From Bacillota bacterium (GTDB taxonomy: Bacteria > Bacillota > Limnochordia > Darwinibacteriales > DTU012), in NCBI GenBank assembly GCA_012837335.1, contig DURM01000015.1, positions 1 to 55,900 on the forward strand: a stretch of 55,900 nucleotides of DNA, read 5' to 3'. A program made the position numbers and the translations under genes. Below the pieces are notes generated by a model that saw nothing but the letters and a program-made list of their open reading frames with translations, was not told the DNA's origin and searched no databases. Of the stretch, positions 35,101-55,810 are shown one piece after another (position 1 is the stretch's first letter; every line of letters starts with the position of its first letter).

Positions 35101-35805
35101 CACAGCTTGGGAAAGATCGGCTCCGGTTAAAGCGCCGCCACTGACGGCAATCAAATCAAGCAAATCCATGTCTGTTTGAATCGGATAACTGCCGGGCTTC
35201 GCTACCGCACCTAACACCAGCGCGTGACCGGACTTCGGAATATAAATCACATCTCCATCCTTTAAAGCTGGGTTGTGGTCAGCTGCGCCGTCATTTATGT
35301 ACTTACTTACATCATAGGTCTCCTTCGAAGCAGCCTCACCTGTCATCCGCGTAACAGTTACTTCAGAAAGCAGGGCGTCCTGATTAGGCCCTCCGGCTTG
35401 TCCAATCGCATCAATCAGCCGGTCATCTGCTTTCAATCGATAGTACCCAGGGGTACGGACTTCTCCAAGCACCTGAACCCGAATTGTTCTAAATTCGGTA
35501 ATAATAACAGTCACGCTTGGCTCGACCACATAAGTCTGCAGTTTTGATTGAATCTCCTGCGCAACTTGGGTCGTTGTCTTACCCGTGGCTAGATGATCAC
35601 CCACTAGTGGGAATGTAATATAGCCATCAGGTCTAACCTGAACAACTGTTCGTAATTCTGGGTGTCCCCAAACTGTAATTTCCAGCACATCTCCTGTGTC
35701 CAGCTGGTAGTTAACTGCAGCAGCTGTTGCGATTGAGCATGTCAAGAACATCAACAAGGCGATAATTAGTGATAGTCGTAACTTTGCTGTTTCTAAACCG
35801 TTCAT
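32107..35805 (-). CDS. Wza-like polysaccharide export protein with 13 SLBB domains
   Basis: 1232 residues. A signal peptide is followed by a poly-export (Wza-type) domain at about 32-105 (LDTGDVLEITVWGHPELRTV, VRPDGYITFPLVGD). Then come 13 SLBB repeats from about 107 to 1203, each near 84 residues, built as V-x-GEV-xxPG-Y...LLD-xxAxAGG...TR...GGD-xxVPE. A C-terminal amphipathic stretch (WNKILGLMSGVRTFQQIIID) may be the outer-membrane pore helix, as in Wza. Ordinary Wza-type proteins have one to three SLBB domains. It should form a long periplasm-spanning conduit for the polysaccharide controlled by the CpsB/C/D-like proteins. GGGGG lies before the ATG. Confidence 0.93.
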   Translation of the reverse strand: MNGLETAKLRLSLIIALLMFLTCSIATAAAVNYQLDTGDVLEITVWGHPELRTVVQVRPDGYITFPLVGDHLATGKTTTQVAQEIQSKLQTYVVEPSVTVIITEFRTIRVQVLGEVRTPGYYRLKADDRLIDAIGQAGGPNQDALLSEVTVTRMTGEAASKETYDVSKYINDGAADHNPALKDGDVIYIPKSGHALVLGAVAKPGSYPIQTDMDLLDLIAVSGGALTGADLSQAVLTRKKDGAHVDYTVDLTSVMQSGKGTWSVQADDVLFIPEKKEVILFGEVRTPGSYSIETGTTLVQLISEAGGVTAMGDAARVSIVRIIGEQEESLTVDISDTLSGKPGANPRLYPGDIIYVPEILNTVLVLGEVRQPGAFVLKEQMGIFDVLALAGGTNDSAALERITITRQSEAEVLVQEIDLTKLQGTGTGREIELLPGDVIFVPEGAPQALVLGRVARPGSYRLTDRTKLLDLLAAAGGPLDSAGDRILLTRNESTVEIDLGALTRLGIGNQTILPGDVVYITEGKHQVLVLGEVANPGYHRLDFGDRVLDGIAKAGGLLDTAAADQVSVTRQVEEQAEVYTVNLEDLMRNRFLDTNFMLEGGDVIIVPEARRYVMVLGEVAKPGYYTFGPDQRLLDVIALAGGVTSSAAADSVQVSRVDADDNSSAAVYDLDAVMKGLSSDNPLVQAGDVVYVPERKTSVLVFGEVASPGYYPVTATTNLLDAIARAGGLTDRAAADQVSLTRIVDGTTMIETIDLQSIMESGHGNIPLSGGEMILVPELDLEVSILGEVRAPGRYTIRRGEKLLDVLAKAGGLTDRAAVAAVSLTRIVDGAASIEVIDLEPVMETGQGNVPLTGGEMILVPELDLEVSILGEVRTPGRYTIRSGERLLDVLAKAGGLTDDADPVLTITRSRGSEQTIYTVDYQQLVRSDGAELNMAVLGGDIIHVPRLNRRVLIFGEVARPGAYTIDEYTTLLDLVGLAGGPTERAKLDEVMIAAAAGGTEVNYLDLGAVIANQQPNPLLSGGEVVHIPQARQVLVMGEVARPGAFTLPEGSRILDLLALAGGLKTNISQQEIVITRQETEGEQVWITTYQALMSNQSEHNLLLAGGDVVFVPELSRQVLVLGEVTRPGVYTIYEGARVLDAIAMADGPTERANLGAVGIYRGEDLTVPSTLAVGQERVLFQGDARENPEIMGGDIIYVPETAKPDWNKILGLMSGVRTFQQIIIDWFKPGR
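32197..35487 (-). repeat. Tandem SLBB-coding repeats, 13 units
   Basis: Thirteen direct repeats of about 250 bases encode the SLBB domains. The units around 33174-33425 and 33426-33680 are the most similar to each other, both carrying LEVSILGEVR-PGRYTIR and KAGGLTD, with an exact period of 252 bases. This points to recent local duplication while the outer units have diverged. Confidence 0.88.
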
Positions 35806-38718: not shown

Positions 38719-41289
38719 CTAGAAGGAGAATCCTAAGCCAGCTTTGATTTCATCAACGTTTTCTGCTGTTTCGTCAGCGAGGTTGATGTTAACTCTCTTA
38801 GCTGACATGTTCAGCTTCATACCTTCAGCAAATCCATAACCGGCTGTTACGTGATGAGTCATTTGGTTAGCAAACTCATCAGCGGTTTCATCATCCCTTG
38901 GCAGAATTAACTCGAAGTTATAGCCTAAATCTAAGGCTGCGCCACCAAGGTCTTTACCGTAACCGACACTAGCATTTACAAAGCTCAGGTCTTTACCAGT
39001 CCACTTGCCTGGATTACGCCAATCGCCATCGATGTAGTTGTTAGCATATGTGAAGCTACCATCAACATCGAGACCGAACAGCTCTAGGCCTGTGCCCACT
39101 TTAAATTGAGTGTGGACATCGTTTTCTTCAACTGCAGGATCGTCGTTGAGCTTCCAGCCATATGCAGCAGAGAGATTGATTGGCAGGAAGATATTCAATT
39201 CGTATCCAGCGTTCAGCATTGTGGAGTTGATGAGGTTGTCACCAGCTGCGTTCTTTTCATTGTATGTGCTTGCAGCCAGGTCAATGCCGAACAGGTTTGC
39301 GCCAGCGTCAAGCGCCAGTCTGGTTTGAGCATCGCTGTCGGTGAAGCCTCTGCTGGTCAGGTTGCCTTCACCAAATCTTGCACCAGCTTTGGTCCATCTT
39401 GCATCAAGGCTCAATACGCCGATTTCAGCGCCGAGATTAACGTCAAACAGCATAGCATCTGTGAGACTGATCTCGTCTTCGGTATCAAAACGGTCTAATA
39501 CCGCTTTAACATCATAGTCTAAGCCAAGCACAGTACCAAACAGGCCAGCTGCAACAGCTGTTTCATCAGCATAGGTTAAGCTCTTATCTGTGTAAGCAGC
39601 ACCGGTCAGTTTGAAGCCAAATGCTGGTACCAGTGAATACTTAGCACCTAATGCTAACATACCGTCGCTAGTTCTTTGACCTGCAAGGGCATAAACATCC
39701 ATATCGCCTAAAGCGATGTCAGCAAGAACCGCTCTATTTGGTTTAACACTCAATGCGTTGGTATCGAATCTCTTTGGAACATCTCCGCCAATAGTACCTA
39801 AAGCAAAGCGGTTAATCGGAGTATCGCTTACAACTTCAAGTACATAGTTATCAAAGGTGGCAACATTTGCCGGGAGATCAGTTTTGCCGCCTAATGTTAA
39901 GCTGGCAGTTGTACCTTCGCTGAGGCGAGCAGTTAACTTGGTTTCAAGTTTGGTTTCGGACCACAGATCTTTTTCATACTCTTTAAGAATACCTTGAGCA
40001 CTGTCCAGATCAACTTTGTTGTCGCCTACAACAGTGGAAACCTTGGTTGTTCCAGTTTCATAATTGATGGAGCCGGATAATTTAACTTTAGTAGCTTCGT
40101 CAACTTTAGCATCGAGCTCAGCTACAGCTGCTTCTACGCCTGTTACAGCTGCTTCTACGCCTGTTACAGCAGCTTCAACATCAGCTACGCGGCTGTCAAG
40201 GCCAGCATACAGTTTTTCTAAATCATCAATGCGCACTCCAAGCAGAGCAAGCTCTTCAGCAAATTCATTGTTAACAGCAGTAAATGTGTTGGCTAATGCC
40301 AGTACTTCTGCATCCAAAGCGCTTTGAAGTGCAGTTACATCGCCTTCAAGAGCTGCGATTAAGCCGTTAACAGTGTTGATATCTTCAGCGTGCGCAGCTT
40401 TCAGAACATCAACCTCTCTGGTTACGCGGCCGAGACGGTCGTTAATGCGGCTTGTGACCATCTGAACGTAATCAGCATTGCTTTCAACTACGTATTCCAG
40501 GTCGTAGAATCTTGCATCTACTTCTTCACCAGTTACATAGTCAGCAGAAATCAAGTCAACTTCTCTGGTTACCCGGTCTAAACGGTCAGAAAGTCTGTTG
40601 GTAACCATTTTAGTATACTGAGCATTATTGAAGATATCTTCTTCGATTGCCCATAAGCTGGAAGCTAAAACTTCCTCAGCGATAGCTCTAACAACATCTT
40701 CATCAACGTCTTCTACAACTACTCTTTCAATTACGCCAGTTTCGACGATTGTTTCGGTAGCTAATTCTTTAGCTTCAGCTAAGTATTCTTTAGTTAACTC
40801 GCCAACTAATGCAGCGATAACAGCTTCAGCTTCTTCAGTCATTACAAACGGACGCTCAACCGGTTGAATTTCAACAACATCTTTAGCAGAAACTGCTTCT
40901 TGAACTGCAATGTCCAGCTCAGCCAGTTTAGCCTCGATTAATTCAGCCAGTTCATTTGTAATAGTTTCTAACTCAGCTAAAATATCTGCAGTGATGCGCT
41001 CTTGAACGCCAGCGGTATTCGAGATAACCTGGCTTTCAACTAAAGCTTCCAATCTTGCTAAGGCACGCGCGAATACCATAGCAGCTTCATAACGAGTCAT
41101 TGTTCTGGTCCCACCGAATGTACCATCAGGGTAACCTTCAACCAAACCTACCGCAGCAAGTTTAGTTACTGAATCATAAGCCCAGTGGTGCGCCGGTACA
41201 TCTGAAAACGGATTGCTTGCGAAAACAGATGTAGTCATAGCGAGAACTAATACTGCTGCTAATACTACTGAAACTCTTTTCAAGTTCAT
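38719..41289 (-). CDS. ompM: SLH-domain outer-membrane porin, OmpM type
   Basis: 856 residues. A signal peptide (to about VFAS) is followed by one SLH domain at about 25-85 (FSDVPAHHWAYDSVTKLAAV, YPDGTFGGTRTMTRYEAAMV), which binds modified peptidoglycan. A long coiled-coil stalk spans about 85-400. It contains two copies of an R-L-x-DRL-x-RVTREVD unit and a triple VEAAVTG repeat. A beta-barrel runs from about 405 to the final FSF. It tethers the outer membrane and forms a pore. It is strongly expressed to judge from AGGAGG, its own leader and a strong terminator. Confidence 0.93.
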   Translation of the reverse strand: MNLKRVSVVLAAVLVLAMTTSVFASNPFSDVPAHHWAYDSVTKLAAVGLVEGYPDGTFGGTRTMTRYEAAMVFARALARLEALVESQVISNTAGVQERITADILAELETITNELAELIEAKLAELDIAVQEAVSAKDVVEIQPVERPFVMTEEAEAVIAALVGELTKEYLAEAKELATETIVETGVIERVVVEDVDEDVVRAIAEEVLASSLWAIEEDIFNNAQYTKMVTNRLSDRLDRVTREVDLISADYVTGEEVDARFYDLEYVVESNADYVQMVTSRINDRLGRVTREVDVLKAAHAEDINTVNGLIAALEGDVTALQSALDAEVLALANTFTAVNNEFAEELALLGVRIDDLEKLYAGLDSRVADVEAAVTGVEAAVTGVEAAVAELDAKVDEATKVKLSGSINYETGTTKVSTVVGDNKVDLDSAQGILKEYEKDLWSETKLETKLTARLSEGTTASLTLGGKTDLPANVATFDNYVLEVVSDTPINRFALGTIGGDVPKRFDTNALSVKPNRAVLADIALGDMDVYALAGQRTSDGMLALGAKYSLVPAFGFKLTGAAYTDKSLTYADETAVAAGLFGTVLGLDYDVKAVLDRFDTEDEISLTDAMLFDVNLGAEIGVLSLDARWTKAGARFGEGNLTSRGFTDSDAQTRLALDAGANLFGIDLAASTYNEKNAAGDNLINSTMLNAGYELNIFLPINLSAAYGWKLNDDPAVEENDVHTQFKVGTGLELFGLDVDGSFTYANNYIDGDWRNPGKWTGKDLSFVNASVGYGKDLGGAALDLGYNFELILPRDDETADEFANQMTHHVTAGYGFAEGMKLNMSAKRVNINLADETAENVDEIKAGLGFSF

Positions 41290-41673: not shown

Positions 41674-42774
41674 CTAATCCGAAGTAACTTCCAGCTTAAG
41701 TTTAACAGGGCCTTCGGCAGCGTACGTATCTGCTAGGACAACAGCCCGTATTCTCACTCTGCCGGTTTCTTCCTTAGCCTGTGCTATTGCTTTCATGAAT
41801 TCATTGCCGTCAACCTCGACTGCTCCTCCGCCAATCGAAGTGATCATGCCCTCCCGGACCGCCACAGCATTGACCTTGTTTAGAAGCTCCAGAATCACCC
41901 TGTCTAAATCGATCTCAATATCAGGATCGAGTACCGTCTCTTCAAGTACCATGCCTTCTGGAAAAACCAATTCATTTTTGATGATGCCTAGATAAGCTTT
42001 GACCGGCTCTCCCACAACCGTGTTTGTTTCTGACAGCACACGCACCACAAACAAGCCCTGCTCCTGTTGAATGTACAAAGCAGCAAAATCCACAGCATCT
42101 TGAGGAATGATGATCGCAGACTCGGAATCACCGTCAACCCTGGCTCCTAATTGATAAGCAACTCGGTCGGCAGTTTTTAAAACATCATAAAGGCGGGTGT
42201 AGTTCTCCTCAAGATCTGAACTGGCCTCGATTACCTGCGCGTAAATAATCTCATCTGAGCGAAAAGCTACGTTACCTAACCGAATAAAGGACTGCACGAC
42301 TTTTAGTTCATCATATTCCGCTTCCAGCTCATCATATTCCTTCTGCAGTCGAGCACGCATCTGCTCCAGCTCATTGTACTGAGCGCGTGTTTCCTCCAAG
42401 TGCAATTGTGCCAGCGCCAAATCTGCCGCAGCAGCATCTCGCTGCTTAATAAGTGTCTGCAGATCTTGCTCCATCTGCGCCATTGTCTCCACACTCTGCT
42501 CCAACTGCTGCTGGTTGCGGGCGAGAGTTTCCTGAATCTCCTTCATCTCAAAAAGCGCAGTCCGCACATCATCAGATGCGATTGTTAGGATAACAATCGA
42601 AGCCACAGAAATAAAAATACCGGTAAAAATCGTAATAATAATTCCGGTGTATTTTGGACGCAGACCAAACAAAGTGAGCCGCTTCCGACCGACTTTCATG
42701 CCGATTTTATCACCGATGTAAGCGATTACTCCCCCGATGAAGGCAAGGATTAATATTAATGTAAATCCATACAT
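41674..42774 (-). CDS. DUF3084 membrane coiled-coil protein
   Basis: 366 residues. Two N-terminal membrane helices (FTLILILAFIGGVIAYIGD and IIITIFTGIFISVASIVIL) flank the conserved KIGMKVGRKRLTLFGLRPKY loop, which marks DUF3084. A coiled coil follows (about 75-160), and a mixed alpha/beta C-terminal domain reaches the end. The family is known from cyanobacteria and Firmicutes but has no assigned role. It is co-directional with lptB, lpxB-like and fabZ and ahead of ompM, which suggests an envelope function. Confidence 0.88.
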   Translation of the reverse strand: MYGFTLILILAFIGGVIAYIGDKIGMKVGRKRLTLFGLRPKYTGIIITIFTGIFISVASIVILTIASDDVRTALFEMKEIQETLARNQQQLEQSVETMAQMEQDLQTLIKQRDAAAADLALAQLHLEETRAQYNELEQMRARLQKEYDELEAEYDELKVVQSFIRLGNVAFRSDEIIYAQVIEASSDLEENYTRLYDVLKTADRVAYQLGARVDGDSESAIIIPQDAVDFAALYIQQEQGLFVVRVLSETNTVVGEPVKAYLGIIKNELVFPEGMVLEETVLDPDIEIDLDRVILELLNKVNAVAVREGMITSIGGGAVEVDGNEFMKAIAQAKEETGRVRIRAVVLADTYAAEGPVKLKLEVTSD

Positions 42775-42813: not shown

Positions 42814-43533
42814 CTACAATCGAAATTCACTGCCCAAGTAGTACTGCCGCGCCAACTGATCTTCTGCCACATCGGCCACCCCGCCTGAAACCAGAATCCT
42901 GCCTTCGTGCATAATGTAAGCCCGATCAGTAATTCTTAGGGTTTCCCGAACATTGTGATCGGTGACCAATATACCCAGATTTCTCGCTCTTAGGGAAGCA
43001 ATAATCTGCTGAATATCACTAACAGCGATGGGATCCACTCCCGCAAAAGGCTCATCCAGAAGCAAAAACGAAGGATTGCCTGCTAAAGCCCTAGCAATCT
43101 CTGTTCTTCTGCGCTCACCCCCGGACAGCTGGTACCCCTTCTGATCCCGCACATGTTCTAAGCGGAATTCCTTGAGCAGACTCTCCAGTCTATCCAGGCG
43201 CTCTTCATGGGTTAATTGGTTCAAAGATAGCACTGCCATTATATTCTCAGCAACCGTTAACTTCCTGAACACTGACGGCTCCTGCGGCAGATAGGCAATT
43301 CCCATCCGTCCGCGTCGGTACATTGGCATGCGGGTAATATTATGGTTATCAAGAATAATTGCACCGGCATCTGCCCGCTCTAAACCGACAATCATCGCAA
43401 AAGTTGTGGTCTTGCCTGCGCCATTAGAACCGAGCAGGCCAACGATTTCACCGCGTTTAACCTGGATGCTTACTTCGTTTACTACTGTCCGCTTCCCATA
43501 GCGCTTAACTAAATCTGTGGCGACAATACTCAC
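42814..43533 (-). CDS. lptB: LptB-type ATPase of the LPS export transporter
   Basis: 239 residues. It powers LptF/G in extraction of lipopolysaccharide-like lipid from the inner membrane. Motifs are [20 protein letters not shown] (Walker A), [20 protein letters not shown] (Q-loop, the typical LptB YLPQE), [15 protein letters not shown] (signature), [20 protein letters not shown] (Walker B) and [10 protein letters not shown] (switch). The GTG start has AAGGAG about 11 bases upstream. Its membrane partner is in the separate cluster at 49-52 kb. Confidence 0.95.
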
Positions 43534-43550: not shown

Positions 43551-44690
43551 CTAACCGATGTTCAGCATTTTTGCAATGATCTGCGCAGCTCGTGCCACAG
43601 CTCCGCTGGTTCCAAATTCAGCCGGCAGACGCTTCAGTTTTTTAAGATATTCAGCTTTGCCATCCTGGTCTTCCAATAAAGCAACTACTGTCTCAGCAAC
43701 CTTAGCTTCAGTAAAATCATTCTGGACTAATTCCGGAACTACACTGTCCTGCATCAAAAAATTGATCATTGCAAATGGAGATTTGCGCAGCAGCATTTTA
43801 TTTAAAAAGTAAGTTGTAGTAGCTACTTTATGTACTGCTACTGCAGGCACATGGGTTAAAGCTGCTAGTATGCTTGCTGATCCACTGGTAACGACAGCCA
43901 CATCCGCATAGTTAAGAATCCCATATACATCATCAGTGAATGTCACCGCATCTACATCCCATTTTTCAATCAGTTTGTCGCAGCATCCCTGATTGATTGA
44001 CTGGGGAACAGCTACTACGGTCTGCACTGCGCGCTCCTCAACATTGATTCGGTTAACTGCTTTGAATAATGTGGGGAGATAGACTTTTACCTCAGTTTCC
44101 CGCAGTCCCGGTACAAGTGCCACAATTGGCTTATCACTGCTTAAGTTCAGTTCGTCAATCATTTCAGGCCTGGGCTTTACAGCAGCGATATCGACTAATG
44201 GATGGCCCGCAAATTCTACATCGATGCCGTGCTTTTGACACAGCTCAGACTCATAGCGCGAAACCGCAATTACCTTATCCACCACCTCTGCGAGACGGGA
44301 TATCTTAACATCTTCAGTGTCCCAATTTAAAGGGGAATTATAATATACAACCGGAATTTCCTTGGTCTTTGCCAATTCAACTAATTTTAAGCTGAATACC
44401 GGCAGCCCGATTTGAATTACTAAGCCGGGCTGGAATTTATCCATCGCTTCTGAGATTCGCTGAACCAAGCGTTTAACAACATGAGAAGCCCTGAGCGCCT
44501 CGAATCCACCCAGGTTCTCTAATTCCGAAATGTTATAGATGAGTTCCACACCATTTTCATCCATCAGCGCTCCGCCAACTCCCAGCAGCGCCAGATCCGG
44601 TATAACCCCCTTTAATGCTTGTGCTAATTGAGCTCCATAAAGATCACTAGAGTTATCACTGCCAATGATCATGATGCGTTTCTGTGCCAT
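43551..44690 (-). CDS. LpxB-like glycosyltransferase, divergent
   Basis: 379 residues of the LpxB (GT19) family: [52 protein letters not shown] and [20 protein letters not shown] are recognisable. True LpxB joins two acylated glucosamine units in lipid A synthesis. Here the N-terminal GEASGD motif reads GSDNSSD, and the segment [13 protein letters not shown] has Gly and Val where E. coli has the important Asp89 and Asp98 (aligned by eye). The Arg of the PGxR motif is kept. The substrate may therefore differ from the classical one. It lies 2 bases after fabZ and 17 before lptB. Confidence 0.82.
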
Positions 44691-44692
44691 TG

Positions 44693-45142
44693 TTATTGAT
44701 TGGCTCCTCTCTTTGTAAGCACAAAAGTCAGCTCGCTTTCCGCTGCAGTTTCACCGTCAACTTCAGCTTTTGCGGCGACCTTTACAATCCGGCTTCTGGC
44801 CCGCAGCACCTCAATCTCAATCACCAGCTGATCTCCGGGCCGCACCATTTTTCGAAACTTCGCCTGATTGACAGCGGCTAAAAGCGGAACCAAAGTTTCA
44901 TCTGGATCATCTGAATCAGGATCGGCTGCTACCGCCAGCCCTCCTGCTTGAGCCATGGCTTCAATGATCAATACGCCCGGCATGACAGGAAAATGGGGAT
45001 AATGTCCCTGAAAAAAGGGCTCGTTTATAGTTACATTTTTAACTGCGACTAACCTTTTTCCTCTTTCCCATTCCAGCACCCTGTCCACCATCAGAAACGG
45101 ATAGCGGTGAGGGAGCTGATGTAGGATCTGATCAATATTCAC
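44693..45142 (-). CDS. fabZ: 3-hydroxyacyl-ACP dehydratase FabZ
   Basis: 149 residues. It dehydrates 3-hydroxyacyl-ACP in fatty acid synthesis. Motifs are LPHRYPFLMVDRV and FFQGHYPHFPVMPGVLIIEA MAQ, with the catalytic His and Glu. The GTG start has AGAAGGTGG upstream. In diderm bacteria it commonly sits with lipid A genes because it competes for the same hydroxyacyl substrate; here only the LpxB-like gene is next to it. Confidence 0.96.
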   Translation of the reverse strand: MNIDQILHQLPHRYPFLMVDRVLEWERGKRLVAVKNVTINEPFFQGHYPHFPVMPGVLIIEAMAQAGGLAVAADPDSDDPDETLVPLLAAVNQAKFRKMVRPGDQLVIEIEVLRARSRIVKVAAKAEVDGETAAESELTFVLTKRGANQ

Positions 45143-45242: not shown

Positions 45243-45971
45243 TCAGCCGGCAATCAACCGCTGGTATTTTCGGCCGATTTCAGACTGGGGAGAAGTGAAG
45301 ATATCCTGAGGTGCACCCGTCTCAACTATTTTACCTCGATCCATTAAGACAATGCGATCCGCAACTTTTAAAGCGAAGCTGACTTCATGAGTGACTATGA
45401 TTGATGTTGTATTGGTTGTCCGCACCAACTCCTCCATCACCTCTAATACCTCACCAACTAAAATCGGATCAAGGGAAGCCGTCGGTTCATCCCAGAGCAT
45501 CAGCTGCGGGTTTGAAGCCAAGGCTCTGGCTATACCCACCCGCTGCTGTTCACCACCGCTGAGCGCGGCTGGACGTTTAGCTTCCATCCCGTTCAAGCCT
45601 ACTTTAGCTAGGGCCTGCTGCGCTCTAGCTTCGGCCTGCACCCGGGGAACACCGGCTAAAACCAGGTGAAACATGACGTTTTCCAGCACAGTTAGTCTGG
45701 CAATTAGATTGAACTGCTGAAACACAAAACCAACTGATCTGCGGAAGCTGCGCAGTTCCTCGCCGTCTAAATTCAGTACGGATCTGCTGTCAAACAAAAT
45801 CTCACCCTCATCCGGTTCTGTCAAACGATTGATGCAGCGGATTGTTGTTGATTTACCGCACCCGCTGGGACCCATGATCACGACTGTTTCACCGCGCTGG
45901 ACTTCCAAGTCTACGCCGTCAACAGCAACTTGTTTACCATACTGTTTTTTCAAACCTTTAATCTTCAGCAT
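45243..45971 (-). CDS. ABC ATPase, polar amino acid (GlnQ) type
   Basis: 242 residues. The sequence follows GlnQ/HisP-type ATPases: MGPSGCGKSTTIRCINRLTE (Walker A), VGFVFQQFNLIARLTVLENV (Q-loop), LSGGEQQRVGIARALASNPQ (signature), MLWDEPTASLDP (Walker B) and IVTHEVSFALKVADRI (switch His). The usual neighbours of GlnQ, a short permease and a binding protein, are absent. Its only partner is the 715-residue membrane protein whose gene ends 11 bases upstream. AGGAGG precedes the ATG. Confidence 0.93.
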   Translation of the reverse strand: MLKIKGLKKQYGKQVAVDGVDLEVQRGETVVIMGPSGCGKSTTIRCINRLTEPDEGEILFDSRSVLNLDGEELRSFRRSVGFVFQQFNLIARLTVLENVMFHLVLAGVPRVQAEARAQQALAKVGLNGMEAKRPAALSGGEQQRVGIARALASNPQLMLWDEPTASLDPILVGEVLEVMEELVRTTNTTSIIVTHEVSFALKVADRIVLMDRGKIVETGAPQDIFTSPQSEIGRKYQRLIAG

Positions 45972-45982
45972 TTGGATCCCTC

Positions 45983-48130
45983 CTAAAATCTTTGTTTTGT
46001 GCGGTTCAGCAAGTTCAGCAGCCCCGGTCTACCGGCAGGAATCACAATTTCATGCATGATCTGAACATTGCTTAAGCCTAAGGACAATCCTGCCATGATT
46101 TCATCTTTGTGAACCGGACTGAATTTCTCCGAAAACACGCCAATCAAACCGCCCAGCACTGCCCCAGTAATGACGACTGCACTCCCAGAAACATAAGGAA
46201 TATCCCCGCGGGCCAAAGTGTATGTGGCTGCCAGCATCATCATTCCCACTGCTGCTCCAAGAATTACAATCGGGTTAAAACAGCGGCCCAAGCGGCTCTG
46301 GGAAGCTTTCTTGTTTACTCTGAACCACTTGAGAGTACTGAAAACTGCTGCGTGATCCAGCATCAAAAAGATCCCAACGAACACAATTGACAGCATACCA
46401 GCAATAGTAGCACGCACCTCTTTGAGGATGCGGAATACTTCTGTTCGCGTATCTGGATTTACAGTACCAACCGAGATGGAGTAAGTGTTGAGATATTGAT
46501 TGTCTAGATGATCGCGGATCACAGGCTCAACCTTTTCCTCATCGATTTGAGCATTTTCGACCAGAATCTGAATGCGCTCACCGGGTATTACCTGCCCGCC
46601 GATATAGTTGTCAACTAGGCGCACTGATTTTCCGATCTCCTCATCATCAAGCTCCGGCAGACTATCGCGGATGTCAGCTATTTGATCGATAATCGCCTGC
46701 ACATCGATGTCCTGTACATTGCTGATTTGATCAGCGATACTGCTGAGGCTGGAGCGCATCGAAGCCACATCCAGATTTTCCAGCGTATCCAGACCATATT
46801 CTTCTGCGCTTTCAGAACCGCTTTTAGCAATATTCTTCAGCAGGCCATTTAAAAACAGCGAGATAATCAACTGCTCGCTTGTAGACTGCACACCGTTTTC
46901 GGCTAAACCTTCATTCAACTGCCGCATCTGCACCTGAAGCACTTCAAGCTGCATCAGCGCTTCTTGAAATGTAGTCAAAACAGCATCAGCCCTATCAACT
47001 GCCACTGCTGCCTCTACTGAAAGCTCATCCAGCTCTTCCAACAGCCGCAGACTTTCATCGATAGCATAATTCAACCGATAGCGCTCGTTTTCCAGGCGTA
47101 CCTCACCAATCTGTTCACCAACGATATTATCACTGCGGTATTTGTACCCGTTTTGAGTGAGTGCTTCTCCAGCATCAGCAATAGATCCGGATACAATCAT
47201 TCCCTGGGCTTGACTGCCCTGAACCTCCAGCACTTCAATTAACACATGATCTGGTTCAATCGGTTTACCAACCTCAGGCGCATCTGCACTCATGCCCTGC
47301 ACGATAATCTGCTCACCGACAACCAGATTTGAATTAGGCTTAAGATCAATCCTGACTTTCGAAGCATAGCTCAACAAAAAGTGGCGCATCTCAACCAAAG
47401 TCTTCATCAGGGCATCTAGTTCTTCCCCATATTCTGCTGATGAGACATTAGCTAAATCGGCGGACTGATACTGTTCCTTCAGCACCTTGACTATTTGATC
47501 AGCGGTTTTCTGCACATCGACTTCAAATCCAATCGGAAATCGGACTTCTAATACTTGATACTCTTTGAGTATTTTTTTTATTTCATTCATTACCGCTTTC
47601 GAATGTTCAGCGGACTCTAATACAACTAGCATATTCTTTCCATCTTTAAAGGCAAAATCAACACCATCCAGCTGATTAAAGCGCTGCTGCAGTGTTTGGG
47701 CCACACTAGGATGCACACCGCGAACCAATACACTTGGTTCTACAATAACTGTATAACTGCTTAATCCAGGCACACCGTTGAAAATCGACGGCAGACGGGA
47801 GAAGGTGTCTTCAGTTTTTGCTTCCTGTGGAAATCCGAACAGAAAATTAGCCTGACCTGCAACAGAGATCGTTTGATTGATTACCGCTCCCTTAAACTGC
47901 TGGTCTGCTATCCTTTCCAATTCGCGCAGTGCCGCTTCCTTAGACGCTTCACGGACATGGAGGATCAGATCATATTCTCCATTGTCGCCAATCACATCCT
48001 GGATTGTATCACCAAAATACGAATCCACTGCCCAGGCTGCTCCTGAGGAGACTGCGGCTCCAACAATGATCGTCACCAAAATTAATATTATATAATCGCG
48101 AAAAAAGCCATCACGAAAGAACTTGAACAT
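45983..48130 (-). CDS. Novel ABC permease with huge external domain and C-terminal EAA-like motif
   Basis: 715 residues. It has one N-terminal helix (about 12-35), an extracytoplasmic region of about 540 residues (36-573, partly helical, with two heptad-like stretches), and then three helices (about 574-592, 620-640 and 648-666). This 1+3 layout recalls MacB/FtsX/LolE proteins. The cytoplasmic tail has AGLSLGLSNVQIMHEIVIPA, then GRP, which matches the EAA coupling motif of amino-acid importers (EAA...G...I.LP...P). It ends 13 residues later with no further helix. The ATG at 48130 follows GAGGAGGGG; a longer start at 48160 lies inside a hairpin. I know of no named family; its cargo is unknown. 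Confidence 0.72.
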   Translation of the reverse strand: MFKFFRDGFFRDYIILILVTIIVGAAVSSGAAWAVDSYFGDTIQDVIGDNGEYDLILHVREASKEAALRELERIADQQFKGAVINQTISVAGQANFLFGFPQEAKTEDTFSRLPSIFNGVPGLSSYTVIVEPSVLVRGVHPSVAQTLQQRFNQLDGVDFAFKDGKNMLVVLESAEHSKAVMNEIKKILKEYQVLEVRFPIGFEVDVQKTADQIVKVLKEQYQSADLANVSSAEYGEELDALMKTLVEMRHFLLSYASKVRIDLKPNSNLVVGEQIIVQGMSADAPEVGKPIEPDHVLIEVLEVQGSQAQGMIVSGSIADAGEALTQNGYKYRSDNIVGEQIGEVRLENERYRLNYAIDESLRLLEELDELSVEAAVAVDRADAVLTTFQEALMQLEVLQVQMRQLNEGLAENGVQSTSEQLIISLFLNGLLKNIAKSGSESAEEYGLDTLENLDVASMRSSLSSIADQISNVQDIDVQAIIDQIADIRDSLPELDDEEIGKSVRLVDNYIGGQVIPGERIQILVENAQIDEEKVEPVIRDHLDNQYLNTYSISVGTVNPDTRTEVFRILKEVRATIAGMLSIVFVGIFLMLDHAAVFSTLKWFRVNKKASQSRLGRCFNPIVILGAAVGMMMLAATYTLARGDIPYVSGSAVVITGAVLGGLIGVFSEKFSPVHKDEIMAGLSLGLSNVQIMHEIVIPAGRPGLLNLLNRTKQRF

Positions 48131-48132
48131 AA

Positions 48133-48186
48133 AAAACCCCTCCTCACCTGGTGTTTTCATTATAACACACCAGCTGGAGGGGTTTT
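48133..48186 (-). promoter_or_regulatory. Terminator-like hairpin covering the ribosome site of the ABC permease
   Basis: AAAACCCCTCC (48133-48143) pairs with GGAGGGGTTTT (48176-48186). An inner stem, CTGGTGT (48148-48154) with ACACCAG (48167-48173), extends it. On the minus strand the 3' arm contains the GAGGAGGGG ribosome site, runs into TTTTTT and then directly into the ATG at 48130. It can act as an intrinsic terminator after lptA and as a lid on translation. TATAAT lies in the loop, about 18 bases after TTAAAA, and may be an internal promoter. Confidence 0.72.
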
Positions 48187-48221: not shown

Positions 48222-48803
48222 CTATTCAGCCTGATTTCGCCGAAATTCACCGCGGAATGGTCCGATAAACTCCATCTGTTCTTCAGCTCTCAGCATAACA
48301 AAATGCTCTCCAAACATCTCCGCATCCGTAACTTCCACAATTACATTCTGGAGGAAGTCTACCTTGTCCTCATTCCTCAAGAACACCATCTGATCAGCCC
48401 AAACAACCGCATCCTTAGTTGTTACTTTGAGGTTGCCGGTGCCGATCATCTTCTCCTGCTCCGTATAATATTCAACTTTATCACCAGTTAAAAACAGATC
48501 ATCCTGCTCAACCTGGACATTACCGGTCACAACCAGGTAATTGTCCTTGCGGCGAAATTCAACAATCTGACCAATTACAATAATACCCTCATATTTAATC
48601 TGCACATACGCCCCTTCAATTTGGGATACGTCGGCTGTAAAAATCTCTGTTTTTAAATCAAAGCCACCCGCTCGCACACCTTCGGGTACACCGACTATGC
48701 CGACCTCTATTTCTCCCGAACCTTCTTGGGCTGCCGCGCCTGCACTGACAAGCGCCAGTGCCACCACTGTAAATATCACTATCAGAGCAGTTACCCTATT
48801 CAT
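48222..48803 (-). CDS. lptA: LptA-like periplasmic bridge protein
   Basis: 193 residues with a signal peptide. The OstA/LptA jelly-roll strands are visible (VEFRRKDNYLVVTGNVQVEQ, LFLTGDKVEYYTEQEKMIGT, DAVVWADQMVFLRNEDKVDF). It should shuttle lipid between LptC and LptD across the periplasm. Its start overlaps the end of lptC by 8 bases (translational coupling). It is at the end of the lpt operon, before the hairpin at 48133-48186. Confidence 0.88.
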   Translation of the reverse strand: MNRVTALIVIFTVVALALVSAGAAAQEGSGEIEVGIVGVPEGVRAGGFDLKTEIFTADVSQIEGAYVQIKYEGIIVIGQIVEFRRKDNYLVVTGNVQVEQDDLFLTGDKVEYYTEQEKMIGTGNLKVTTKDAVVWADQMVFLRNEDKVDFLQNVIVEVTDAEMFGEHFVMLRAEEQMEFIGPFRGEFRRNQAE

Positions 48804-49260
48804 CGCCTTTTCCTCCTTGATGTATGGTTACAGACGTATCCCCCATAAATTCAATATACTCACTGGCACCATACCAAACCAGCTGGTTGGTAGCCAGATA
48901 GAATCCTGACTGATCCTCAACGGTGACATTGCTGCTCAAGTGCAGTTCATTCTGTTTCGGGGACCATATCCCCTGATCCGCAGAAAGGTAGTATCGCGGC
49001 TCCTCTGCTGCAAAGATGATCATCTGATCGAGGTGATCTAAATAAACTAAGCTGTTTTCCTGCCGCAGTGATTCGGCAGTCAGTTCCCATTGACGAACGC
49101 CTTTGTCGTTACCCACCAGGGAAACTCTTTCCAAAATCACGCCGGGATCCGCTGTCTCTATCTCATGACCATCACTTTCCGGGCGGACCACAAGAATAAC
49201 TCCGACGATAGTTGTAATAACGATCACTGCAATGACTGCAGTTTTATGTCGTGGGGTCAT
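48796..49260 (-). CDS. lptC: LptC-like protein
   Basis: 154 residues. One N-terminal membrane helix (TAVIAVIVITTIVGVILVV) anchors a periplasmic beta-jellyroll (GVRQWELTAESLRQENSLVY, YYLSADQGIWSPKQNELHLS, FYLATNQLVWYGASEYIEF). It receives lipid from LptF/G and passes it to LptA. GAGGTGAG precedes the ATG. Confidence 0.9.
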   Translation of the reverse strand: MTPRHKTAVIAVIVITTIVGVILVVRPESDGHEIETADPGVILERVSLVGNDKGVRQWELTAESLRQENSLVYLDHLDQMIIFAAEEPRYYLSADQGIWSPKQNELHLSSNVTVEDQSGFYLATNQLVWYGASEYIEFMGDTSVTIHQGGKGDE

Positions 49261-49287: not shown

Positions 49288-51447
49288 CTAATTGCTTCCG
49301 AACGTATCTTTCAAATCCTCAAGCTCAAAGAAGCTGATTCCTTCCTTTGAACTGATCTCAATCGGCAGTTTCGGGAAGGCTTTAATAGAATACTGAACTT
49401 TAAATTCCTCCCTCACCTGATCGTAGCTCATCACCAGCTCGCGGCAGTGCAAATCGAGGGTCAACACTAGTTTCCCGGTACTCAATTTCTGCGTTTTTTC
49501 CGGCTCATAAACCACATCATAGCTGAGCTTAAGGGTTTCAGTTAAATCAAAGACAATTTTCCCATTAACCCGCTTCAGCGATTGACTGTGAATATTGTAC
49601 ACCGCTCCAACATTGAAAACCCAGTCAGTCTGAGGCCGATAGTTGATGCTTCCGCTTAACTCACCGAATCGGCGGTTGTTTAGATCGTAGTTGACTGCCA
49701 AACTGGCTGTAACAGGCTGTCCGGAACCGCTGTAATTTAATTGGGTTCGCAGATTGTTGAAACGCTGGTTGAGAAAATTATAGCCACTGCTGACAGTGAG
49801 AGTAATCGGCTGCTTAGAATACCTAAAGGTACCAGTCAACTGGTCCTGTTCATTTAACTTATCAAATTTAAACGGAGTTTCGCCCCATACCAAGCGCTTC
49901 TGATAATTAGCGGTTACTCTGGTGGTATCCGTCAGCTGCTGAGTCAAACCGAAACGGCCATACACAGACTGCTGGCTCTGATTAGTATCATAAAAATAAC
50001 CTGTTAGATTACCACCGTACGTAAGTGTAGTTCCGAAATCAGAGCGCCAGCTCTGGGTGAACAGTTCCACTGCAGGCGCAATCCGCCAAGCGGTTACATC
50101 AGCAGGATATTCGCTGAACCTGCCCTGTGAAACCTGGAACTGACCCGGCCATGCTGCACCGGCTAAAGACGGGTTGTACCACTGCCAGGTAAACTCGGGC
50201 ATGCGGTTGATGCTGCTCCACGCTGGTTTTTTGAGCTCATCCAACAGATCCGGATTGTATTTCTGCTCCACTGCCAGGTTGAAGCGGTGGTTCTGATATC
50301 GATAGCTGGTCTCCACTAGGTGATTCCGGGTTTTCGTATCGTCTTTTGCTGTTATGTTAGAATTGGCATTGATATCCCAGCTGGGATTCAGCTGGTACCG
50401 CCAACTGCCTGAAGCAGTCCAGGTGGAGGATTTTTCCTCTCCTTTTTGATCTAAACGGTAGTTAAAACTGCCGTTTAACCGCATAGCTTCAGTTTGATAC
50501 GAAAAACTGGTGGAGCTGGAGCTGTCCTGCTTCAGTACAGCGTTTTGATACTCCCGCAGATATGCATTACTGGTACTGAGCGTGAAATTATCACCTGAAT
50601 ACTTATGCTGAACCTGCGCCATCAGATACTTGCTGGCAGCAAAAGGCAGAGCATAAAATGCTGCGGTACCATCTCCCAGAAGATCATGGCGGTAATTGTG
50701 GTTAACACCTAAACCCAAGCCTTTGCGGGTGTAGTAATCATAAAGCAGGGAACCGCTGGCGTTTTCACTGATATAGTAATTGTAGCGGTTCTTGATATAA
50801 TATCCATCGCTGCTGTTGTAGCCAATTTCCGGCAGCGTAAAATCGAATTCTTCATCATCAAGAGGAATGACAAGATAAGGCCAATAGAAAAGCGGCAGCT
50901 TTCCTTCATAAAAGCGCACCCCGCGGATAACCATTTTGTCACCGGGATAGATTTCCAGCTCGCTGACTGCCAGATGATAGTGAGGTTCACTCATATCACA
51001 GGTAGACAGCACACCATCATGCATAAAGTAGGTTTCCGAGTCAATGTGAACCCGATCTCCAAAGACAAAAATCGGACCTTTCACTTTTTCTGAAACCAAC
51101 TGTGTCCGTGGGCTGACAAACTCTCCTTTAGCGTCAACAACATTATAAACCAGGCTTTCACCTTCAAGATAGGCTTCGCCCTGCTCCATTAGGACGCTGC
51201 CCTCCAGATACAGCTCTTGGTTGTTTAAATCCCAGACCAGCTGTTCTCCCTTCAGCACCAGACCATCGACGCTAATAACCACACTGCCGGATGCATAAAG
51301 CAGCTGCTGTTTCATATCCCACCGCGCTGTATCAGCGCCCTCGATCGTAATCGGCTGGTTTTCAGCTGCTGCGGCTGTGCTGATCAGCGCAGCAAACAAA
51401 ATCAGCAGTACTGGTACAATTTTTCTGCGCAAATATACCACCTTCAT
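49288..51447 (-). CDS. lptD: LptD-like outer-membrane LPS assembly protein
   Basis: 719 residues. A signal segment leads to an OstA jelly-roll at about 30-130 (WDMKQQLLYASGSVVISVDG, LVWDLNNQELYLEGSVLME) and the LptD barrel (LFYWPYLVIPLDDEEFDFTL, then many strands). Cysteines appear in LSTCDMSEPHYHL (between jelly-roll and barrel) and in DLHCRELVMSY near the end. This is the pattern of the disulfide that joins the two parts in other LptD proteins. The ATG at 51447 adjoins the stop of the permease gene; a TTG at 51432 with AAGGTGG is an alternative start. No LptE partner is recognised. Confidence 0.9.
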   Translation of the reverse strand: MKVVYLRRKIVPVLLILFAALISTAAAAENQPITIEGADTARWDMKQQLLYASGSVVISVDGLVLKGEQLVWDLNNQELYLEGSVLMEQGEAYLEGESLVYNVVDAKGEFVSPRTQLVSEKVKGPIFVFGDRVHIDSETYFMHDGVLSTCDMSEPHYHLAVSELEIYPGDKMVIRGVRFYEGKLPLFYWPYLVIPLDDEEFDFTLPEIGYNSSDGYYIKNRYNYYISENASGSLLYDYYTRKGLGLGVNHNYRHDLLGDGTAAFYALPFAASKYLMAQVQHKYSGDNFTLSTSNAYLREYQNAVLKQDSSSSTSFSYQTEAMRLNGSFNYRLDQKGEEKSSTWTASGSWRYQLNPSWDINANSNITAKDDTKTRNHLVETSYRYQNHRFNLAVEQKYNPDLLDELKKPAWSSINRMPEFTWQWYNPSLAGAAWPGQFQVSQGRFSEYPADVTAWRIAPAVELFTQSWRSDFGTTLTYGGNLTGYFYDTNQSQQSVYGRFGLTQQLTDTTRVTANYQKRLVWGETPFKFDKLNEQDQLTGTFRYSKQPITLTVSSGYNFLNQRFNNLRTQLNYSGSGQPVTASLAVNYDLNNRRFGELSGSINYRPQTDWVFNVGAVYNIHSQSLKRVNGKIVFDLTETLKLSYDVVYEPEKTQKLSTGKLVLTLDLHCRELVMSYDQVREEFKVQYSIKAFPKLPIEISSKEGISFFELEDLKDTFGSN

Positions 51448-51448
51448 C

Positions 51449-52567
51449 TCAATGCAGTCGATCAGCACGAATCAACAAAACAATGCCAGTCAGCGCAAAG
51501 ATGCTGTTGGTCAGCCAAGCAGCCGCTAGAGGCGGAATTACCTCATTAATCGCAAGCGAGCGGCAGACAGGTGTTGCAACGTAATACAGCAGAGTAACAA
51601 CAAGGCTGACTGCAATACCGAATGATTTGCTGCTCTTGCTGAAAAGACTTAACGGGGCAGCGAACAGAACAAAGATGAACGACGCCATCGGCAGCGCCAG
51701 CTTCAAATGATAGTCCACTACAAACGACAGCACTTTTAAGCCGCTCCGCTGGAATCTGTCAATATGCTCTTTCAGCTCTTTGCGGCTCATTTCATCACTG
51801 GTTTTTTGGTTGCCAAAATATAAATCGGATGAATCAGGAGTAACAATCTGCATCGTTTCAAAGCGGGTCTGGTAGCTTACGTATCCATCCTCATCGAGGT
51901 TCTGCACCAGTCCATCCTCGAGATACCAGAAATTATCCCGATAAGTTCCGGAATTTGCTGTAATAAGACGGGGAAAGCCATCGGGTTCAGTTTCGTAAAC
52001 CAAGATATTCCTGAGGATTCGGTGCTGTTTGTTGACCTCATTGATATAAAAATAACGGTTTTCTCCCCCTAAAAAGAAAACATTCTCTTCGATCAACGGT
52101 GAGTCTTCCTGATAAATAAGTTCCCGAAACAGCTTCTGAAACTCATGGTTTGTCCAGGGTACGACTTCCTCATTAAGCAGATAGGTCGCGCCGCTGATAA
52201 GCAAAGCGGCAGCAACCACCGGGATCATAATCCGCCAGTACGGCAGACCGCTGCTGCGCATGACAATCATCTCACTGTCCTGATTGAGGCGGCCTAGACT
52301 TAAAAGCGTTGAGAAAAGCGCGGCTACGGGCAGAGTCATCACAACAATCCCAGGCAGATAATAAATCAGCATTCTGGTTACAGTTCGAATCGGCACTTTC
52401 TTGACTAAGAACAGATCGATCAATTCAAACAGCACTCCGCTTAAGAGGATTACTGTAAAGCCGATTACACAAAATACAAAGGGCCAGAAAAACTCCCTCA
52501 GAGTATACCGATCCAAAATAGCTGAGCCGCGCAGCGTTAAGGCTCGGTACTGCTTTGTTTGAATCAT
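51449..52567 (-). CDS. LptF/LptG-family LPS export permease
   Basis: 372 residues. Six membrane helices and a periplasmic jelly-roll fit the YjgP/YjgQ family: ILDRYTLREFFWPFVFCVIG, a YYLPGIVVMTLPVAALFSTL helix, SEMIVMRSSGLPYWRIM, a central beta domain (GENRYFYINEVNKQ, YRDNFWYLEDGLVQNLDED) and C-terminal helices. Only one member is encoded, so it may form a homodimer or pair with a copy elsewhere. It precedes lptD and needs LptB, encoded 8 kb away. AAGGGG lies 8 bases upstream. Confidence 0.92.
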   Translation of the reverse strand: MIQTKQYRALTLRGSAILDRYTLREFFWPFVFCVIGFTVILLSGVLFELIDLFLVKKVPIRTVTRMLIYYLPGIVVMTLPVAALFSTLLSLGRLNQDSEMIVMRSSGLPYWRIMIPVVAAALLISGATYLLNEEVVPWTNHEFQKLFRELIYQEDSPLIEENVFFLGGENRYFYINEVNKQHRILRNILVYETEPDGFPRLITANSGTYRDNFWYLEDGLVQNLDEDGYVSYQTRFETMQIVTPDSSDLYFGNQKTSDEMSRKELKEHIDRFQRSGLKVLSFVVDYHLKLALPMASFIFVLFAAPLSLFSKSSKSFGIAVSLVVTLLYYVATPVCRSLAINEVIPPLAAAWLTNSIFALTGIVLLIRADRLH

Positions 52568-54167: not shown

Positions 54168-54593
54168 TCAGCGCAGGCGTTTTATGACTTCACTGCTGAT
54201 ATCTTTCCCGCCATACCTCACTAAATCCACATCCAGAACCAGCTGCAGATCTGCTTCTTCAGCAGCTTCCGATATGGCCTTAGCTAAGGCTGCCTGGAAT
54301 TCCGTTTCCAGCTCCTGTCTAAACCGCAGGTACTCGGCATAAACCGCTCGCTCCTGATCAGCCCTTGTTTCCTCATCAATTCCTTCCGTATCACTGCTCT
54401 GCAGCTGAGTAATCAACTGATCGTATTTTTCAGCTAACTGCTCATTTAACCTCTGGGCATATTCACTTTCGCTTAAGATCTTACCCATGTCAATCAGTCC
54501 AATCTGTTCAAGGGAAGCGTTCTGGCCGTACAAAACCCAAATCAGTGCCAATGCGCAGAGAGCAGCCAACAGCCAGGGAATATATCTTCTCAT
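54168..54593 (-). CDS. OmpH/Skp-like protein
   Basis: About 141 residues. An N-terminal hydrophobic segment (IPWLLAALCALALIWVLYG) is followed by the OmpH pattern: IGLIDMGKILSESEYAQRLN, a long charged helix and the closing VLDVDLVRYGGKDISSEVIK. Skp-type proteins are periplasmic chaperones for outer-membrane barrels. The ATG at 54593 is preferred over a GTG at 54602 because GGCGGTGA lies before it. The protein may stay anchored in the inner membrane. Confidence 0.85.
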   Translation of the reverse strand: MRRYIPWLLAALCALALIWVLYGQNASLEQIGLIDMGKILSESEYAQRLNEQLAEKYDQLITQLQSSDTEGIDEETRADQERAVYAEYLRFRQELETEFQAALAKAISEAAEEADLQLVLDVDLVRYGGKDISSEVIKRLR

Positions 54594-54624
54594 CGCAGTC
54601 ACCGCCTTATGTTTTCAGTGACTA

Positions 54625-55302
54625 TTATTCCCTGACCGCAGCTGCTCTACGCATATCCGCTTCTAGCTTCTGCTTTTTGGCTGCCAGTTCGGCATCCAAT
54701 CTCTGTTTGTACTGCTCAAACATCCTGCCCAGCTTTTCTGCATTACTTTCTTCAAAAGCAAGTAGTTTTTCCTTCTGTCGTTTTTCTTCAGACTCCTTAA
54801 AGACTTCCAGCTTTTGATTCAGTTCCTGCTCATATTCAGAACGCATGACCGCGTACTCTGCCCGCATTTCGCTCAGCTGTTCTTCAAGCTGAACGCGCTC
54901 AGACTCACTCAAATTGACAATTGCTAACCGCAGCTGAGCATTGAGAATGGGCAGCTCATATCTTTGGCGCAGTTTATCAGCAAGTTCCGCAGACTCGGAT
55001 TCTAGCTGTGCCAGGTAGGCTTCCACATTAACTGCAAACTCTGCTTCCGAGGCAGCAAGCTGCTCTTCAAAATCACTTTCAGCCTGCTGCCTCAAGATGA
55101 GATGGTACTGCTCCAGCTGCAGCTCATAATCTTCAATCAGCTTCTGCAGTTCCACAGTATAGGCCTCATAAACCTGCTCTGTATAAGCAGTTTGCTCCTT
55201 GGCTCCCTCACCGGACTGTTTTGATAAATTGTAAATCCAAACTACAGCAGAACTTATACTCAACACGCATGCGAGACCAATTAACAGCCATGTTTTTCTC
55301 AC
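54625..55302 (-). CDS. Membrane-anchored coiled-coil protein of the OmpH unit
   Basis: 225 residues. One N-terminal helix (TWLLIGLACVLSISSAVVWI) is followed almost entirely by charged alpha-helix (about 40-220, with glutamate-, glutamine- and lysine-rich heptads such as EEQLSEMRAEYAVMRSEYEQ). It lacks the OmpH C-terminal motif. It sits between two OmpH-like genes with spacings of about 16 and 31 bases and may assemble with them. Function is inferred from context only. Confidence 0.72.
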   Translation of the reverse strand: MRKTWLLIGLACVLSISSAVVWIYNLSKQSGEGAKEQTAYTEQVYEAYTVELQKLIEDYELQLEQYHLILRQQAESDFEEQLAASEAEFAVNVEAYLAQLESESAELADKLRQRYELPILNAQLRLAIVNLSESERVQLEEQLSEMRAEYAVMRSEYEQELNQKLEVFKESEEKRQKEKLLAFEESNAEKLGRMFEQYKQRLDAELAAKKQKLEADMRRAAAVRE

Positions 55303-55318
55303 TGCGCATGCTCCTTAA

Positions 55319-55732: not shown

Positions 55733-55777
55733 TGGTAACCCTCCCAATTTATAATGATTACTATTTATAACAAATAT

Positions 55778-55807: not shown

Positions 55808-55810
55808 ATC

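What the first reader, a model, noticed from the sequence alone, without database searches (positions are those of the whole stretch)
43551..44690. LpxB-like enzyme missing two acidic residues important in E. coli
By eye, the region matching Asp89 and Asp98 of E. coli LpxB reads IGLPVF, and GEASGD reads GSDNSSD. No lpxA, lpxC or lpxD is seen in the window, although these often lie close by in other diderm Firmicutes. Together with a complete Lpt system this suggests a different glycolipid could be made and exported.
Basis: partly seen in the sequence, partly recalled or inferred. Interest (0 to 1): 0.72.

Follow-up and report, generated by a model that had tools for sequence, protein, structure and literature searches.

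The report
Repurposed LpxB in lipid-A-less bacteria
A whole order of two-membraned Firmicutes has deleted the genes that start lipid A (endotoxin) synthesis but kept a rebuilt version of one later enzyme, LpxB, next to an intact outer-membrane lipid exporter, which suggests that it now helps to make a different surface glycolipid.

Summary
The LpxB-like gene is real (43551-44690, minus strand; PF02684, 188 bits). Residue 95 is Gly where E. coli LpxB has Asp98, the predicted catalytic base. Asp98 is present in 87/87 other LpxBs examined from many phyla, and Gly in 39/39 members of this clade. The GEASGD-like loop keeps its acids (E15→D, D19→D). The missing pathway is confirmed well beyond the window. 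The genome (98% complete) and all 37 genomes of its order lack LpxA and LpxC, and none has LpxD above cut-off; 34/37 keep LpxB, 35/37 LptF/G and 36/37 BamA. Sister lineages with lipid A have the same gene order plus lpxC, lpxA and lpxI around fabZ-lpxB and msbA before lptB. The order lost these in place and kept fabZ-lpxB*-lptB. The gene is under purifying selection (ω≈0.07) and keeps most UDP-pocket residues and Arg201, but lost the tryptophan groove proposed for the acylated donor. A second LPS-less lineage kept D98, lost R201, and has a galE-like gene between lpxB and lptB. Best reading: LpxB orphaned and repurposed as a glycosyltransferase for another Lpt-exported lipid. Substrate inferred, not shown. 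New variant of a known kind.

The parts
43551..44690 (-). LpxB* : LpxB-derived GT-B glycosyltransferase-like protein, 379 aa
   Evidence: PF02684 188.3 bits; TIGR00215 175.1 bits, under its 190.25 cut-off; predicted structure pLDDT 87, pTM 0.86, best Foldseek match LpxB 5w8n, E 1.2e-18
44406..44408 (-). codon of Gly95, in the place of the catalytic base Asp98
   Evidence: ungapped alignment to 5w8n; 39/39 Gly in clade, 87/87 Asp outside
44412..44414 (-). codon of Gln93, new invariant residue of the clade two residues before the lost base
   Evidence: 39/39 Gln in clade; mostly hydrophobic and variable elsewhere
44655..44657 (-). codon of Asp12, in place of Glu15
   Evidence: 38/39 Asp in clade, 86/87 Glu elsewhere
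44100..44102 (-). codon of Arg197 = E. coli Arg201, retained
   Evidence: 39/39 Arg; Arg201 contacts UDP phosphates and is critical (PMC5785501)
43866..43868 (-). codon of Leu275 = E. coli Glu281 (ribose-binding Glu), lost in this genus but kept in 34/39 of the clade
44693..45142 (-). fabZ, remnant of the lpxC-fabZ-lpxA cluster; ends 2 bases before LpxB*
   Evidence: TIGR01750 187.8 bits over cut-off 155; synteny; spacing
42814..43533 (-). lptB, ATPase of the Lpt exporter, 17 bases after LpxB*
   Evidence: TIGR04406 359.6 bits over cut-off 240; adjacent in all 20 clade loci measured
41674..42774 (-). DUF3084 protein, conserved downstream neighbour in both lipid A-positive and -negative members
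   Evidence: PF11283 107 bits
45243..45971 (-). ABC ATPase; in relatives with lipid A, lpxC follows directly
45983..48160 (-). 725-aa membrane protein of unknown family, probable permease of that ABC system
   Evidence: no Pfam, NCBIfam or PDB match; conserved in both groups; poor model, pTM 0.43
48222..48803 (-). LptA-like periplasmic protein
   Evidence: PF03968 31 bits over cut-off 20.4; TIGR03002 below its cut-off
48796..49260 (-). LptC-like protein
   Evidence: PF06835; TIGR04409 41 bits over cut-off 38
49288..51468 (-). LptD-like protein (by position, length, OstA-like N-terminus)
   Evidence: weak LptA/LptC-type matches only; conserved in the cluster
51449..52567 (-). LptF/LptG permease; only copy found in this genome
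   Evidence: PF03739 322.9 bits; one copy in own genome, usually two in lipid A-positive relatives
38719..41289 (-). SLH-domain OmpM-type outer membrane tether (supports an outer membrane)
   Evidence: PF00395 SLH 47 bits

Best explanation
This is a former lipid A disaccharide synthase (LpxB) that lost its pathway and was repurposed. In the ancestry of this order of Limnochordia, lpxC, lpxA, lpxI, lpxD and the cluster's msbA were deleted, leaving fabZ-lpxB-lptB (shown by comparison). LpxB then changed at its catalytic and acyl-binding side: the base Asp98 became Gly within a new conserved motif Q-I-G-L-P, Glu15 became Asp, and the tryptophans of the groove proposed to hold the acylated donor were lost. 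The phosphate-contact motif (P-G-x-R), Asn316 and, in most members, Glu281 stayed (shown). I infer that it transfers a sugar from an ordinary, non-acylated UDP-sugar to a membrane lipid other than lipid X, with another residue or the acceptor itself doing the base's job, and that the product is loaded by LptB/F/G onto the LptC-LptA-LptD bridge to fill the outer leaflet in place of LPS (inferred).
For: No LpxC or LpxA C-terminal domain, and no LpxD above cut-off, in 37/37 genomes of the order, while 34/37 keep LpxB; controls ring in E. coli and other LPS genomes. Elsewhere in the class 33 genomes have LpxD (33/33) and LpxC (31/33) with canonical LpxB of 262-337 bits; full-length LPS-less ones score 155-207 bits. 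Same gene order on both sides, with lpxC, lpxA, lpxI and msbA missing in place; no lpxC/A/I remnants in the clade's mapped loci. LPS-less clade monophyletic, 100/100, nested among Limnochordia LpxB. D98 -> G in 39/39 against D in 87/87; R201, P198, G199 39/39, N316 38/39, E281 34/39; W128 lost; new invariant Q93. dN/dS 0.074 and 0.14. lptB directly downstream in 20/20 clade loci, while fabZ is absent in 4. A second LPS-less lineage (f12) has a galE-like epimerase gene between lpxB and lptB, pointing to a simple UDP-sugar. BamA in 36/37 and LptF/G in 35/37 genomes of the order.
Against: No substrate, product or activity shown. This genus also lost the ribose-binding Glu281 (L275) and Thr277 (S271), which weakens UDP binding in exactly this protein. 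LpxB* evolves somewhat faster relative to its neighbours than canonical LpxB does. f12 kept D98 but lost R201 and T277, so the two LPS-less lineages did not converge on one new active site. MsbA left the cluster, so the flippase for a new glycolipid is unknown. The genomes are mostly MAGs; no cultured member was found for lipid chemistry.
Confidence: 0.5

Rival explanations
1. LpxB* is a pseudoenzyme: it has lost transferase activity and is kept as a structural or regulatory partner of LptB or of the membrane lipid balance.
For: Loss of the predicted general base D98 in 39/39, of Glu281 in this genus, and of R201 in lineage f12; directly upstream of lptB in the clade loci measured; chains of Tetrahymena respiratory complexes rank among the structural matches by Z, so this general fold may occur in a non-catalytic role.
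Against: The UDP-phosphate motif P-G-x-R is invariant in the clade and E281 kept in 34/39; new invariants (Q93, G95, P97) lie in the active-site motif itself; galE-like neighbour in f12.
Confidence: 0.25
2. LpxB* is a decaying relic of the LPS pathway with no important function.
For: LPS genes all gone; LpxB* diverges faster than LptB or FabZ; not detected in 3 of 37 genomes.
Against: Open frames in 16 of 18 genera, dN/dS about 0.07-0.14, motif residues strictly conserved over a clade averaging 46% identity; the three genomes without it are drafts in 240-440 contigs.
Confidence: 0.07
3. The organism still makes a lipid A-like disaccharide, with unrelated enzymes replacing LpxA, LpxC, LpxD and LpxI, and LpxB* works as LpxB.
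For: LpxB* remains next to fabZ in most members and is nearest to LpxB in sequence.
Against: Several enzymes would need replacement at once; the base and donor-groove residues invariant or nearly so in other LpxBs are precisely those lost; msbA also left the cluster.
Confidence: 0.05
4. LpxB* uses a UDP-sugar without a lipid acceptor, e.g. as an epimerase or hydrolase, or glycosylates a phosphate or polyprenyl acceptor for surface polysaccharide rather than an outer-membrane lipid.
For: Non-hydrolysing UDP-GlcNAc 2-epimerases give the highest-ranked structural alignments among enzymes (Z 27.9); a phosphate acceptor needs no general base (established chemistry); polysaccharide export genes lie about 8-15 kb away.
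Against: GT-B enzymes of many kinds score alike, so fold rank is not function; only 10-18% identity to the epimerases; position beside lptB favours a lipid role.
Confidence: 0.13

Closest known systems
LpxB, lipid A disaccharide synthase (GT19, PF02684, TIGR00215; E. coli structure 5w8n/5w8x)
   Same: Family, predicted GT-B fold, P-G-x-R phosphate motif, Asn316, place between fabZ and lptB
   Different: Catalytic base D98 is Gly, E15 is Asp, W128 lost, Glu281 lost in this genus; its substrates cannot be made by the known enzymes; score below the TIGR00215 cut-off
TIGR03492, 'lipid-A-disaccharide synthase-related protein'
   Same: An LpxB relative outside the LpxB equivalog family
   Different: Only 23.5 bits against a cut-off of 219; this protein is far closer to true LpxB
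Lpt systems in diderms without LPS (many diderm Terrabacteria, some Spirochaetes; discussed in PMC11784454)
   Same: Lpt retained after loss of LPS; other glycolipids proposed as cargo, not shown
   Different: Here the loss is caught inside one class with the gene order preserved, and a modified LpxB is kept beside lptB
Four-enzyme lipid A pathway (lpxD-lpxC-fabZ-lpxA-lpxB) of Cyanobacteria and Dictyoglomi (PMC3087551)
   Same: Resembles the state of lipid A-positive Limnochordia, nearly all of which lack LpxK and KdtA
   Different: This order has lost even that core except LpxB

Membership tests
LpxB (lipid A disaccharide synthase) | PF02684 domain over cut-off | tested here: met
   188.3 bits, cut-off 22.6
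LpxB (lipid A disaccharide synthase) | TIGR00215 equivalog score | tested here: not met
   175.1 bits, cut-off 190.25; canonical relative L104 scores 293.8
LpxB (lipid A disaccharide synthase) | Asp98 catalytic base | tested here: not met
   Gly95; 39/39 of clade Gly, 87/87 others Asp
LpxB (lipid A disaccharide synthase) | Arg201, Pro198, Gly199 phosphate motif and Asn316 | tested here: met
   Arg/Pro/Gly 39/39; Asn 38/39, the other a gap
LpxB (lipid A disaccharide synthase) | Glu281 ribose contact | tested here: not met
   Leu275 in the window; Glu in 34/39 of the clade
LpxB (lipid A disaccharide synthase) | Trp126/Trp128 groove proposed for the acyl chains of the donor | tested here: not met
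   W123 kept but T125 in the window; in the clade W126 in 6/39, and position 128 is L, F, T, P or D in 36/39
LpxB (lipid A disaccharide synthase) | Genome makes UDP-diacylglucosamine (LpxA, LpxC, LpxD) | tested here: not met
   none in own genome nor, over cut-off, in the order
LpxB (lipid A disaccharide synthase) | Domain-swapped GT-B dimer | tested here: inconclusive
   Monomer model only: pTM 0.86, best Foldseek match 5w8n
LpxB (lipid A disaccharide synthase) | Transfers diacyl-GlcN from UDP to lipid X | not testable with these tools
   needs enzyme assay
TIGR03492 LpxB-related protein | Model score over cut-off | tested here: not met
   23.5 bits vs 219.2
Lpt exporter | LptB, LptF/G, LptC, LptA homologues together | tested here: met
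   LptA by Pfam only
Lpt exporter | LptD beta-barrel | tested here: inconclusive
   726-aa protein in position, no LptD model over cut-off
Non-hydrolysing UDP-GlcNAc 2-epimerase | Family sequence match beyond the shared GT-B fold | tested here: inconclusive
   structural Z 27.9 but 14% identity; no Pfam match to that family at E 0.001

The most novel reading that the evidence does not exclude
An entire order of diderm Firmicutes builds its outer membrane with a glycolipid unrelated to lipid A, made by a neofunctionalised LpxB with a new catalytic arrangement (QIGLP in place of the IDxP motif) and delivered by the ordinary Lpt machine: a natural example of replacing endotoxin while keeping the export route.
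Probability: 0.4. Interest if true: 0.86.

Novelty: new variant of a known kind. Interest (0 to 1): 0.68.

Why it matters
What Lpt carries in diderms without LPS is an open question: a 2024 review calls a role of Lpt in Spirochaete glycolipid transport 'entirely hypothetical' (PMC11784454). Here one class holds both states with the gene order preserved, so loss of lipid A can be followed gene by gene, and the orphaned LpxB beside lptB names a single protein that may reveal the cargo. It also offers a natural test of which LpxB residues serve donor, acceptor and catalysis, and shows that an annotation 'LpxB' or 'lipid-A-disaccharide synthase' does not prove lipid A.

Tried and rejected
Missing genes as an assembly gap: rejected, since 0 of 37 genomes (26 of them at least 90% complete) have LpxC and the cluster is contiguous across the deletion points. 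Remnants of lpxC, lpxA or lpxI in clade loci by tblastn: none (I read the weak hits of the second-glycosyltransferase and MsbA queries as LpxB* itself and the ABC ATPase, by position). Single sub-threshold LpxD hit in G028 (22 bits, cut-off 30.8): not counted. Weak KdtA hit in G016 (19.6 bits, below cut-off): not counted. Relatives outside the class with the same D98G: none among the 57 non-clade named loci kept. The tree places f12 beside the clade with 85/85 support only; both are long branches, so one or two losses of lipid A cannot be decided. The model of the 725-aa neighbour was too poor (pTM 0.43) for a fold search. Literature searches found no report of this; subscription papers such as a 2020 phylogenomic survey of the Firmicutes (known to me, not held) could not be read, so prior mention cannot be excluded. 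Two family scans failed on wrong coordinates and were rerun.

Full report
What is there. The gene at 43551-44690 on the minus strand is an intact 379-codon frame with a strong LpxB match (PF02684, 188.3 bits) that falls just short of the stricter LpxB equivalog model (TIGR00215, 175.1 against 190.25). It begins 2 bases after the stop of fabZ and ends 17 bases before lptB. The predicted structure is confident (pLDDT 87, pTM 0.86) and its best Foldseek match is E. coli LpxB 5w8n (E 1.2e-18).

The residues. Against E. coli LpxB the alignment runs without gaps through the N-terminal domain. Asp98, the predicted catalytic base (PMC5785501), is Gly95. The Glu15-Ser17-Asp19 loop keeps its acids (Asp12, Asp16). 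In an alignment of 39 clade members and 87 other LpxBs from many phyla, Asp98 is present in 87/87 outside and Gly in 39/39 inside; Glu15 is Asp in 38/39; Trp128 is replaced; Gln at E. coli position 96 is a new invariant (39/39). Pro198, Gly199 and Arg201 are invariant, Asn316 is kept in 38/39 with one gap, and Glu281 is kept in 34/39, though not in this genus. The UDP half is thus largely kept and the catalytic/acyl half rebuilt.

The pathway is missing. Searches of the whole genome and its order (37 genomes, 18 genera) found no LpxC and no LpxA C-terminal domain, and no LpxD over cut-off, while 34 of 37 keep LpxB. In the rest of the class, 33 genomes have canonical LpxB (262-337 bits), LpxD in 33/33 and LpxC in 31/33; three genomes of another family (f12) lack LpxC and LpxD like the order, and two of them have a divergent LpxB. 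LptF/G is present in 70 of 73 genomes (35 of 37 in the order) and BamA in 71 of 73 (36 of 37), so the outer membrane and exporter remain. Named relatives in public collections are Limnochordia and related Bacillota MAGs, many from digesters or sediments by their record titles.

How it was lost. Gene maps of 40 loci (domain) show in lipid A-positive relatives: ABC permease - ABC ATPase - lpxC - fabZ - lpxA - lpxI - lpxB - second glycosyltransferase - msbA - lptB - (second lptF/G) - DUF3084, with extra genes in some. In the order: ABC permease - ABC ATPase - fabZ - lpxB* - lptB - DUF3084. No lpxC, lpxA or lpxI remnants are found in the clade's mapped loci. fabZ is absent in four of the mapped clade loci (L088, L092, L094, L206) while lpxB* stays and lptB follows it in all 20 clade loci measured.

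Selection and ancestry. The clade is monophyletic (bootstrap/SH-aLRT 100/100) and nested among Limnochordia LpxB. Between this gene and its closest relative dN/dS is 0.074, and 0.14 for another pair of the genus (dS is high, so approximate). LpxB* diverges somewhat faster relative to its neighbours than canonical LpxB does, consistent with changed but real constraint.

A second lineage. f12 kept Asp98 but lost Arg201 (Thr) and Thr277 (Ala) in both genomes read, and carries a galE-like sugar-nucleotide epimerase gene between lpxB and lptB. Both LPS-less lineages have thus lost hallmark LpxB residues in different ways, as expected if the old reaction is no longer selected. The epimerase is the best hint that the donor is an ordinary UDP-hexose.

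Mechanism. Shown: loss of the lipid A genes, retention and constraint of LpxB*, and the residue changes. Inferred: that it is an active transferase, that it uses a non-acylated UDP-sugar and another lipid acceptor, that a different residue or the acceptor itself replaces the base, and that Lpt exports the product. A pseudoenzyme partner of LptB is the main rival, particularly in this genus, which also lost Glu281.

Known context. Lpt without LPS is known in several diderm groups, and glycolipids have been proposed as cargo (PMC11784454). Isolated lpx genes have been reported in other bacteria (PMC3087551; PMC11448272). Published work in the library treats Negativicutes and Halanaerobiia as LPS diderms and lists Limnochordia among Gram-negative-staining diderms (PMC5007114; PMC11448272). 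No paper found describes an LPS-less Limnochordia order with an orphaned, altered LpxB. I therefore rate it a new variant of a known kind: it is derived from LpxB and works most likely like a GT-B lipid glycosyltransferase, but it is not filed as LpxB because tested defining features (Asp98, equivalog score, substrate pathway) are not met.

Noticed in passing
L103-L105, L189-L202 (lipid A-positive Limnochordia): All but one of the lipid A-positive genomes (G054) lack LpxK and KdtA; a second, weakly LpxB-like glycosyltransferase follows lpxB before an MsbA-like gene (e.g. L104:7429-8682). This suggests a Kdo-less, four-enzyme type lipid A.
   Followed up: partly
window 45243-48160: An ABC ATPase and a 725-aa membrane protein with a C-terminal loop like the EAA loop of importers sit inside the Lpt cluster of both lipid A-positive and -negative members; the large protein has no known family. 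Possible lipid transporter, perhaps replacing MsbA.
   Followed up: partly
window 32107-35805: 1232-aa polysaccharide export protein with 13 SLBB repeats, more than is usual in Wza-type proteins as I know them.
   Followed up: no
window 54168-55840: Three tandem OmpH/Skp-like proteins (144, 225, 173 aa); one passes the OmpH model, the others are assigned by similarity and position.
   Followed up: no
L101:10647-11588 and L203:578-1516: galE-like sugar-nucleotide epimerase gene between lpxB and lptB in the second LPS-less lineage (L101 scanned; L203 has a gene of like size in the same place).
   Followed up: partly
whole class, LptF/G: Lipid A-positive genomes mostly carry two LptF/G genes on either side of the lpx cluster; nearly all LPS-less ones carry one.
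   Followed up: no
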